Assembly (NCBI GenBank): GCA_029559475.1
Contig: JAKQBN010000038.1
Location: 1 to 23,789 of the forward strand
Reading direction: 5' to 3'
DNA length: 23,789 nucleotides
From: a bacterium
Lineage (GTDB): Bacteria > UBA4055
In this document: one piece after another, positions 22,871 to 23,789 of the stretch
Numbering within the stretch: the first letter of the stretch is position 1
Layout of the letters: every line of letters starts with the position of its first letter
Notes under the pieces: generated by a model
What the model was told of the DNA's origin: nothing
Database searches by the model: none
What the model saw: only the letters and a program-made list of their open reading frames with translations
Program-made: the position numbers and the translations under genes

Positions 22871-23443
22871 TTAAATTAAATATGTTAAAAACTGTGCGCA
22901 GCCTATTATGAATCCGAGAACACCTCCGAAATACGTTACATATGCAAGCTGGGTTTTAGTGACGCTAAGAATAAGACTTTCCAGTTTTTCTAACGAGAAA
23001 TCCTTTACTTTTTCTTCTACTGTAGCTTTTATATCCAGTTCACTAATCACTGCGGGCAGTTCGCTGTCCATCATTTCTATCACTTTATCTGAGATCATTT
23101 TTCTGATATCTGCAGTAATGAAAGCGGAAAGCATTCCGAACTGACCGTACATTTTATCGAGAGCTTCAGAGATTTTTTTTCTGACAGCTTCCTTTTTAAA
23201 AAGTTCGTGAAGAGATTCGTTCGAAAGTAGATGATCACCGACAGTAGCGCCAATTTTTTCTGCGAGTTTCTGATGCTCTTTGGGAATTACCCCTGGAGTG
23301 AAAGGTATTCTTATTCCAAATATATATTTCGGTTTAAAAGGCCTGAAAAGCATCTTTATGGCTAGGTAATTTGTAAACAGACCGATCAGAGCCCCAAGCA
23401 GCGGCGGCATGACGAATTTTATTATAATGTCAGTTGCGTCCAA
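22871..23443 (-). CDS. DUF445 family membrane protein
   Basis: A 190-residue protein. The N-terminal helix and the family signature GALIGLFTNYLAIKMLFRPF followed by KPKYIFGIRIPFTPGVIPKE (about residues 17-56) identify DUF445 (YheB-like). A long soluble, helical centre and a C-terminal membrane helix (about 167-188, YFGGVLGFIIGCAQFLTYL) follow, so the centre is held between two membrane anchors. The function of the family is not established. The start is TTG 23443, with AGGAG at 23450-23454, six bases upstream; the next methionine is inside the first helix. The upstream region is interrupted by an IS110 element about 40 bases away, and no local-type promoter remains. Confidence 0.88.
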   Translation of the reverse strand: MDATDIIIKFVMPPLLGALIGLFTNYLAIKMLFRPFKPKYIFGIRIPFTPGVIPKEHQKLAEKIGATVGDHLLSNESLHELFKKEAVRKKISEALDKMYGQFGMLSAFITADIRKMISDKVIEMMDSELPAVISELDIKATVEEKVKDFSLEKLESLILSVTKTQLAYVTYFGGVLGFIIGCAQFLTYLI

Positions 23444-23475
23444 TTATATCTCCTACTTATTTTTTGTTTAAATTT

Positions 23476-23484
23476 CGTTAAGTT
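23476..23484 (+). repeat. 9-bp repeat at the IS110 left junction (candidate target half)
   Basis: CGTTAAGTT here is repeated exactly at 23580-23588 in the second loop of the predicted bridge RNA, in the same orientation. The match does not extend either way. This is what a left target sequence beside the element would look like. Chance is roughly one in a hundred for a search of this size, by my rough estimate. Confidence 0.5.
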
Positions 23485-23501
23485 TTTAATTAAATTTGTA
23501 A

Positions 23502-23645
23502 TAGCAAGACAGCCTCATGTTTTCTAGGTCCCTGTTTACGAACAAACCTCTAAAGGAGTCAGCTGCTTGCTGTTAATCCCGTTAAGTTGGTTAGGCGTAA
23601 TAGCCTCAGTCAATATGGAGATTGGATAACAGCAATACCTTGCTA
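23502..23645 (+). ncRNA. Predicted IS110 bridge RNA (seekRNA) with two guide loops
   Basis: Three nested elements form a three-way junction. Closing stem: TAGCAAG (23502-23508) with CTTGCTA (23639-23645). Arm A: CAGC-CTC (23510-23516) with GAG-tca-GCTG (23556-23565), enclosing a loop with a small GTTT/AAAC hairpin (23534-23537/23544-23547). Arm B: TTGCTGTTA (23567-23575) with TAACAGCAA (23627-23635), a bulged A, then TCC/GGA (23577-23579/23624-23626), enclosing a loop with an AGGC/GCCT hairpin (23593-23596/23603-23606). Known bridge RNAs of IS110 elements have a target loop and a donor loop, each an internal loop with guides on both sides. Arm B's 5' side carries the junction repeat. TAAATTTG (23491-23498) could be a -10-like start signal. 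Pairing was done by eye. Confidence 0.6.
23580..23588 (+). repeat. Candidate left target guide in bridge RNA arm B
   Basis: CGTTAAGTT on the 5' side of the arm B internal loop, identical to 23476-23484 beside the element. As RNA it could pair with the bottom strand of that DNA, as a left guide does. The position in the unpaired part of the loop makes the match more meaningful than its length alone. Confidence 0.5.
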
Positions 23646-23670
23646 ATTAAAACTAACCTAAGGAGGGTGC

Positions 23671-23789
23671 ATGTACACTACTTTCGTAGGCATAGACATC
23701 TCGAAGTCGAGCTTCGATGTATGCATTCTTGATCACAGTAAGATCAAGCCTGTTCATTTTAAGTTTAAAATGGACTCTGATGATTTCAG
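23671..23789 (+). CDS. IS110-family transposase, partial (N-terminus)
   Basis: The first 39 codons of a gene running off the right edge. It reads MYTTFVGIDISKSSFDVCIL..., the conserved IS110/IS1111 start: a RuvC-like strand with the first catalytic aspartate (D9 in GIDISK) and FDV. These transposases are DEDD recombinases that, guided by the element's own RNA, insert and excise at short specific sites. A strong AGGAGGG site lies at 23661-23667, three bases before ATG 23671. The tyrosine/serine-containing C-terminal domain and the other acids are outside the window, so integrity cannot be judged. The orientation is opposite to the DUF445 operon. Confidence 0.88.
   Translation, partial: MYTTFVGIDISKSSFDVCILDHSKIKPVHFKFKMDSDDF

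What the first reader, a model, noticed from the sequence alone, without database searches (positions are those of the whole stretch)
23485..23670. The leader of the IS110 transposase folds like a bridge RNA with two guide loops
The 144 bases 23502-23645 form a closing 7-bp stem and two arms of 7 and 12 paired bases, with only 1-3 unpaired bases at the junction. Each arm opens into a large internal loop capped by a 4-bp hairpin. This matches the two-loop design of IS110 bridge RNAs (target-binding and donor-binding loops), although the sequence family appears unlike IS621. It would be a natural RNA-guided recombinase in a poorly sampled lineage.
Basis: partly seen in the sequence, partly recalled or inferred. 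Interest (0 to 1): 0.85.

Follow-up and report, generated by a model that had tools for sequence, protein, structure and literature searches.

The report
Bridge RNA aimed at gene starts
The leader is a two-loop guide RNA of a mobile DNA element, and its target loop spells out the signal where bacteria start making proteins (ribosome-binding site plus start codon), so copies of the element sit exactly there, in front of host genes.

Summary
Confirmed and extended. The window ends inside the left end of an IS110-group element in a Candidatus Delongbacteria/UBP11 MAG. The leader 23502-23645 folds as described; in 34 homologous leaders from several phyla, 19 of 25 pairs show compensatory changes and the closing stem covaries too. 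The loops are guides: with element ends located independently in 28 loci, right target guides pair with their own right flanks at 102/112 non-core positions (48 expected, 0/20,000 permutations) and left guides with left flanks at 141/224 (106 expected, 0/20,000). Core CT, donor ATAGTTGA-CT-CCTAC. The element has at least six copies in its genome. All seven left flanks checked read AGGAG-N5-8-start codon-ORF, and sister genomes show one precise empty site. The target loop addresses translation starts: right guide AAAGGAG (Shine-Dalgarno-like), left guide CAUGUUUUCU (CAT = start-codon complement). Across relatives all 18 such right guides accompany CAT in the left guide, against 1 of 18 others; the class changed at least three times on the tree. 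Bridge RNAs (IS621) and start-site targeting (IS900) are both known; the guide linking them is the new part. RNA expression and activity were not measured.

The parts
23450..23789 (+). Left part of the IS110 element (cut off by the contig end); core CT 23450-23451, right-donor sequence CCTACTT from 23452
   Evidence: Six left ends in the genome share sequence from CTCCT onward and differ before it; interior and right end on C77
23441..23449 (-). Left target flank: spacer and start codon (TTG on the minus strand) of the DUF445 gene into whose Shine-Dalgarno sequence the element inserted
   Evidence: AGGAG-N6-TTG followed by a 190-aa ORF; same gene uninterrupted in G001/G002, CATTTATATCTCCCTTG
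22871..23443 (-). Host gene at the insertion site (DUF445)
   Evidence: Pfam PF04286 E 8e-37
23502..23645 (+). Bridge RNA (structured part)
   Evidence: Fold, covariation; transcript ends not known
23502..23508 (+). Closing stem, 5' strand (pairs with 23639-23645)
   Evidence: covariation across 28 loci
23639..23645 (+). Closing stem, 3' strand
23504..23513 (+). Target-loop stem, 5' strand (pairs with 23562-23570; GCAAG is shared with the closing stem)
   Evidence: Helix 1: 8 of 9 pairs with two-sided changes
23562..23570 (+). Target-loop stem, 3' strand
23516..23525 (+). Left target guide CAUGUUUUCU (CAT = start-codon complement; CU pairs with the core)
   Evidence: left guides match left flanks, 0/20,000 permutations; CAT in 18/18 SD-type guides vs 1/18 others
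23552..23558 (+). Right target guide AAAGGAG, pairs with CTCCTTT (core CT plus right target)
   Evidence: 102/112 paired across loci, 0/20,000 permutations
23576..23579 (+). Donor-loop stem, 5' strand (pairs with 23624-23627)
   Evidence: Helix 3: 4 of 4 pairs with two-sided changes
23584..23592 (+). Left donor guide AAGUUGGUU, matches left donor ATAGTTGACT with G-T wobbles at the end
   Evidence: donor conserved in all relatives
23617..23620 (+). Right donor guide core GGAG, pairs with CTCC at the left end
   Evidence: in L080 (core CA) it is GGTG for CACC
23624..23627 (+). Donor-loop stem, 3' strand
23671..23789 (+). Start of the IS110 recombinase gene (39 of 393 codons; complete on contig C77)

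Best explanation
The leader is the bridge RNA of an IS110-group element (about 1.5 kb: left end with the RNA, a 393-aa DEDD/serine recombinase, a right end of about 120 nt). Inferred by analogy with IS621: the RNA is transcribed, binds the recombinase, and its second loop pairs with the joined ends of the excised circle (ATAGTTGA-CT-CCTAC) while its first loop pairs with chromosomal DNA. Shown here from sequence: the right guide AAAGGAG of the first loop pairs with CTCCTTT, the complement of a Shine-Dalgarno sequence, and the left guide CAUGUUUUCU carries the start-codon complement at about the usual spacing. The element is found inserted at the CT inside the Shine-Dalgarno sequence of genes, pointing away from the gene, with no target duplication. 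Because the element itself begins CCTAC, AGGAG is restored in front of the start codon. That this preserves expression, and that this is why the guide class exists, is inference.
For: Covariation of four helices and of the closing stem. Guide-flank pairing far above permutation for both target guides, with ends located independently of guides. Catalytic residues D, E, D, D and S aligned to IS621. 7/7 left flanks read AGGAG-N5-8-start codon-ORF against 2 of 24 AGGAG sites in the window. Precise empty site in two sister genomes. SD-type right guide and CAT in the left guide go together and change together on the tree.
Against: No RNA, binding or recombination data. Within the SD class the left guide fits the variable spacer only weakly (60/120 vs 54.4 expected; 1763 of 20,000 permutations as high), so the start-codon part rests on the CAT association, on 3 independent comparisons. 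Right donor guide pairing is only about 4 nt. The circle-junction promoter is weak in this copy (4/6 at -10).
Confidence: 0.93

Rival explanations
1. It is a bridge RNA, but only the right guide (Shine-Dalgarno complement) directs it. The preference for start codons comes from loss of insertions elsewhere, and CAT in the left guide is inherited by descent without a role.
For: Left guide-flank pairing within the SD class is weak. Only 3 independent changes of class on supported branches. Insertions inside genes would be purged.
Against: CAT in 18/18 SD-type left guides vs 1/18 others. In distant L068/L075, where the SD guide stands apart from the main SD group on the tree, CAT is present; in L058, which lost the SD guide, CAT is gone. 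Left guides clearly pair with left flanks in non-SD relatives (81/104 vs 59.9).
Confidence: 0.2
2. The leader is an ordinary 5' untranslated region or regulatory leader of the transposase; the fold is a chance one.
For: The single-sequence z-score is only -2.67, and no Rfam family matches.
Against: Two-sided changes in 19 of 25 pairs, closing stem covariation and loop-to-flank pairing cannot be explained this way.
Confidence: 0.01
3. Target choice is made by the protein recognising AGGAG in DNA, and the RNA has another role.
For: All copies in this genome use one guide, so within this genome RNA and protein cannot be separated.
Against: Across relatives the flank follows the loop sequence, including single-base differences inside the SD class (34/39 vs 25.0, 0/20,000) and complete switches such as L058 and L080.
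Confidence: 0.02

Closest known systems
IS621 bridge RNA system, IS110 group (PMC11208160, PMC11208158)
   Same: Upstream RNA with target loop first and donor loop second; left guide of about 9 nt and short right guide, CT core shared by target and donor; DEDD plus serine recombinase; no target duplication; TTGAC(T) at the end reconstituting a promoter in the circle (seen clearly in several relatives).
   Different: RNA sequence unrelated as far as could be seen; right guide pairs about 7 nt rather than 4 (the paper reports longer right guides in some orthologues); target is the translation start site, not REP elements; recombinase is longer (393 aa against 326) and distant.
IS900 (Mycobacterium avium subsp. 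paratuberculosis), IS110 family
   Same: Target motif CATGNNNNNNTCTCCTT (PMC8141618; Doran 1997, cited there, 'targets translation initiation signals'), i.e. start codon complement, spacer, Shine-Dalgarno complement, same orientation of the motif.
   Different: Here CAT-N5-8-CTCCTTT without the fixed G. IS900's own bridge RNA was not examined, so shared guide logic is a prediction. Close descent was not tested.
seekRNA of IS1111/IS110 elements (PMC11187229)
   Same: RNA from the non-coding region guides target choice; natural re-programming among relatives is reported there and seen here.
   Different: In IS1111 types the RNA usually lies downstream of the gene and the target-matching regions are in reverse order; here it lies upstream in the IS110 order.

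Membership tests
IS110 group with bridge RNA | DEDD (RuvC-like) plus IS110 Tnp domain with catalytic serine | tested here: met
   Pfam PF01548 E 1.2e-33 and PF02371 E 5e-27; D9, E59, D102, D105, S312 conserved with the 35% relative and aligned to IS621 D11/E60/D102/D105/S241
IS110 group with bridge RNA | Longer non-coding end upstream of the recombinase gene, holding the RNA | tested here: met
   Left end about 221 nt, right end about 120 nt
IS110 group with bridge RNA | Conserved RNA structure with two internal loops | tested here: met
IS110 group with bridge RNA | First loop base-pairs with both sides of the target, sharing the core dinucleotide | tested here: met
   Permutation tests
IS110 group with bridge RNA | Second loop base-pairs with the donor (joined element ends) | tested here: inconclusive
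   Left donor guide fits the conserved ATAGTTGACT and GGAG fits CTCC, with L080 (GGTG/CACC) as the one compensating case; the donor hardly varies, so covariation cannot be tested well
IS110 group with bridge RNA | Insertion at the core without target duplication or terminal inverted repeats | tested here: met
   Empty site for the C4/C8 copy in G001 and G002
IS110 group with bridge RNA | Promoter formed at the junction of the circular form | tested here: inconclusive
   TTGACT-N17-TATAAT in four relatives, but only 4/6 at -10 in this copy
IS110 group with bridge RNA | RNA is expressed and binds the recombinase | not testable with these tools
   Needs RNA sequencing and binding assays
IS1111 group | Guide RNA region downstream of the gene | tested here: not met
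   The structured, guide-bearing region is upstream
IS900-type target choice | Insertion at the start codon/Shine-Dalgarno region, motif CATG-N6-TCTCCTT | tested here: met
   7/7 left flanks AGGAG-N5-8-start codon; right flanks CTCCTTT in 6 of 7 right ends; the fixed G after CAT is not required here. This is similarity of behaviour; kinship to IS900 was not tested

The most novel reading that the evidence does not exclude
A class of natural bridge RNAs carries a two-part address for translation initiation regions (start-codon complement in the left guide, Shine-Dalgarno sequence in the right guide). It has been gained or lost at least three times, and it lets an element spread to many generic sites while restoring the ribosome-binding site it splits. 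The same logic would explain IS900.
Probability: 0.7. Interest if true: 0.7.

Novelty: new member of a known kind. Interest (0 to 1): 0.6.

Why it matters
Bridge recombinases are being developed as programmable DNA-rearrangement tools, and most natural guides are known only by prediction. This clade gives 28 natural guide-flank pairs per side with clear rules (CT core, about 7-nt right guide, about 8-nt left guide, one CA core) in a branch far from IS621. It also offers a concrete, testable explanation for the old observation that some IS110 elements (IS900) sit on translation start signals: the guide RNA spells out the ribosome-binding site and the start codon. Aiming at a motif that stands before very many genes is a different strategy from a rare or repeat-bound site.

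Tried and rejected
Rfam at gathering and permissive thresholds: only chance hits. Viral-contig scan: no relatives. Plasmid tblastn: thousands of IS110 elements at 33% identity or less, none usable as an IS900 stand-in. The window's own insertion: the DUF445 start is uninterrupted in G001/G002, but none of the seven right-end contigs matched the DNA upstream of it there, so its right partner is unresolved; the C4/C8 copy served instead. An empty site for the complete copy in L053 was not found. A first closing-stem test used wrong 3' segments through a coordinate slip and was replaced. Streptococcus and Clostridia loci (about 30% identical, L088-L132) were not used: the two leaders looked at (L089, L091) did not resemble the others.

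Full report
WHAT IS THERE. The window is one contig of a MAG (G000:C34; 2.28 Mb in 83 contigs) and breaks off inside a repeated element. A contig with an almost identical transposase is titled Candidatus Delongbacteria, and a decayed close copy comes from UBP11; only 13 genomes of the phylum are held. From 23671 the frame MYTTFVGIDISKSSFDV begins an IS110 transposase whose complete 393-aa gene is on contig C77. Pfam gives DEDD_Tnp_IS110 and Transposase_20. IS621 and ISCro4 are its solved relatives; D9, E59, D102, D105 and S312 correspond to D11, E60, D102, D105 and S241 of IS621 (the PDB chain is numbered two higher than the paper).

THE ENDS. Searching the genome with the leader and with the region behind the transposase finds six left ends and seven right ends, nearly all at contig ends, as expected where copies of one repeat collapse in assembly. 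Left junctions read flank|CTCCTACTTATT and right junctions TTAATAGTTGACTCC|TTTT (once CTCC|ATTAATT). With a CT core as in IS621, the donor is TTAATAGTTGA-CT-CCTACTTA and the target N-CT-CCTTT. For the copy in front of the elongation factor P gene (left flank on C4, right flank on C8) the two flanks lie side by side in two sister genomes, GCTTCCTTCATTTTTA-CTCC-TTTATATCAATT, which is the empty site; insertion leaves no duplication.

WHERE IT INSERTS. All six left flanks in this genome, and that of the complete copy L053, read on the gene strand AGGAG, 5-8 bases, start codon, ORF. Of 24 AGGAG sites in the rest of the window only 2 are so placed. The genes are unrelated: DUF445, EF-P, an SDR, TusA, a WYL regulator, and one without a Pfam match (the gene at L053 is cut by the contig end). 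The element lies inside the Shine-Dalgarno sequence and points away from the gene; because its own first bases are CCTAC, AGGAG is restored before the start codon. Selection against insertions elsewhere could contribute to this pattern.

THE RNA. The wider segment folds better than all but 1 of 200 shuffles, with a partly different pairing. One genome-collection scan with a small transposase alignment brought 80 loci. The close ones (36-51% identical; Campylobacterota, Cloacimonadota, Nitrospirota, Syntrophia and other deltaproteobacteria, Spirochaetales, Desulfofervidaceae, Acetomicrobium, Aminicenantes) have an unmistakably homologous leader. On 34 of them, 25 pairs in four helices are 94.5% paired, with 136 two-sided changes (42 in shuffles, at most 30 when slid). 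The closing stem also covaries: own-partner duplexes average -15.6 kcal/mol, swapped -11.25, and 0 of 10,000 swaps are as low. Strand 23504-23508 can serve either the target arm or the closing stem; which is used in the complex is open.

GUIDES AGAINST TARGETS. Ends of the relatives were located by conserved end motifs (CTCCTAC-like on the left, ATAGTTGACT-like on the right), not by resemblance to guides, and core bases were left out of the scores. Right guide with right flank: 102 of 112 positions pair, 47.8 expected from permuted loci, none of 20,000 permutations as high; this also holds inside the SD class (34/39 vs 25.0) and inside the rest (50.5/60 vs 33.7). Left guide with left flank: 141 of 224 vs 106, none of 20,000. 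Examples: L073 GACTACAG/CTGTAGTC, L072 TCAGGAG/CTCCTGA, L058 AAGAAAG/CTTTCTT, L083 left CTTCACCT/CTTCACCT. L080, with a CA core, has right guide TTTCTG for CAGAAA and donor guide GGTG for CACC. This is the kind of covariation by which bridge RNAs were recognised (Durrant et al. 2024, PMC11208160), here in a branch far from IS621. Permutation does not correct for shared descent; the within-class tests reduce but do not remove that concern.

THE ADDRESS. In 18 of 36 elements the right guide ends GGAG; all 18 have CAT in the left guide, against 1 of the other 18 (Fisher 4e-9), and the real left flanks show CAT in 13 of 16 against 0 of 13. Elements are related, so that p-value overstates independence. 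On the transposase tree the class changed at least 3 times (4 on the best tree), and CAT went along in essentially all of the 3 independent comparisons on supported branches, too few for significance alone. Beyond CAT the left guide fits the variable spacer only weakly (60/120 vs 54.4). The target loop therefore looks like a two-part address for translation starts, the Shine-Dalgarno part being the firmer.

COMPARISON. By the features tested it is a member of the IS110 group; the donor pairing and the circle-junction promoter (perfect TTGACT-N17-TATAAT in four relatives, weak here) are inconclusive for this copy. Its choice of site is that of IS900, CATGNNNNNNTCTCCTT (PMC8141618, which cites Doran 1997). 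No paper found in the held library linked bridge RNA with Shine-Dalgarno targeting, but that library is partial, so priority cannot be claimed. Expression, binding and activity are untested.

Noticed in passing
L053 (JAQVNT010000164.1) = G009:C280: Contig binned to another genus (g4) carries a practically identical copy of the element, and its right flank is 91% identical to G001 of the window's own genus, so it is probably mis-binned.
   Followed up: partly
L060:650-857 against L053:1409-1616: The right end of the decayed UBP11 copy is about 90% identical (97% in places) to that of this element, although the transposase DNA is only about 71% identical. Unexplained: constraint on the right end, or exchange between elements.
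   Followed up: partly
window 23660-23671: The ribosome-binding site of the transposase itself (AAGGAGG, then ATG at 23671) resembles the target class, so the element might be able to insert into itself.
   Followed up: no
window 23582: The window's leader has T where the other five left ends and L053 have A, two bases before the left donor guide.
   Followed up: no
L012:4912-5463 (contig C4): One copy sits in the Shine-Dalgarno sequence of the elongation factor P gene, apparently tolerated.
   Followed up: partly
L064 and L069, right flanks of the element: The right flanks share GTAATGTTG...CCAATTCA-ACAACATTTCAA, an imperfect palindrome: elements with non-SD guides (right guide ..CAG, left guide ..CTTCCT) may be aimed at an intergenic repeat in deltaproteobacteria.
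   Followed up: no
L063 (JAPDJT010000009.1): A contig labelled Thermoplasmatota archaeon carries an element very close to that of a Desulfofervidaceae MAG (L061): recent transfer or mis-binning.
   Followed up: no
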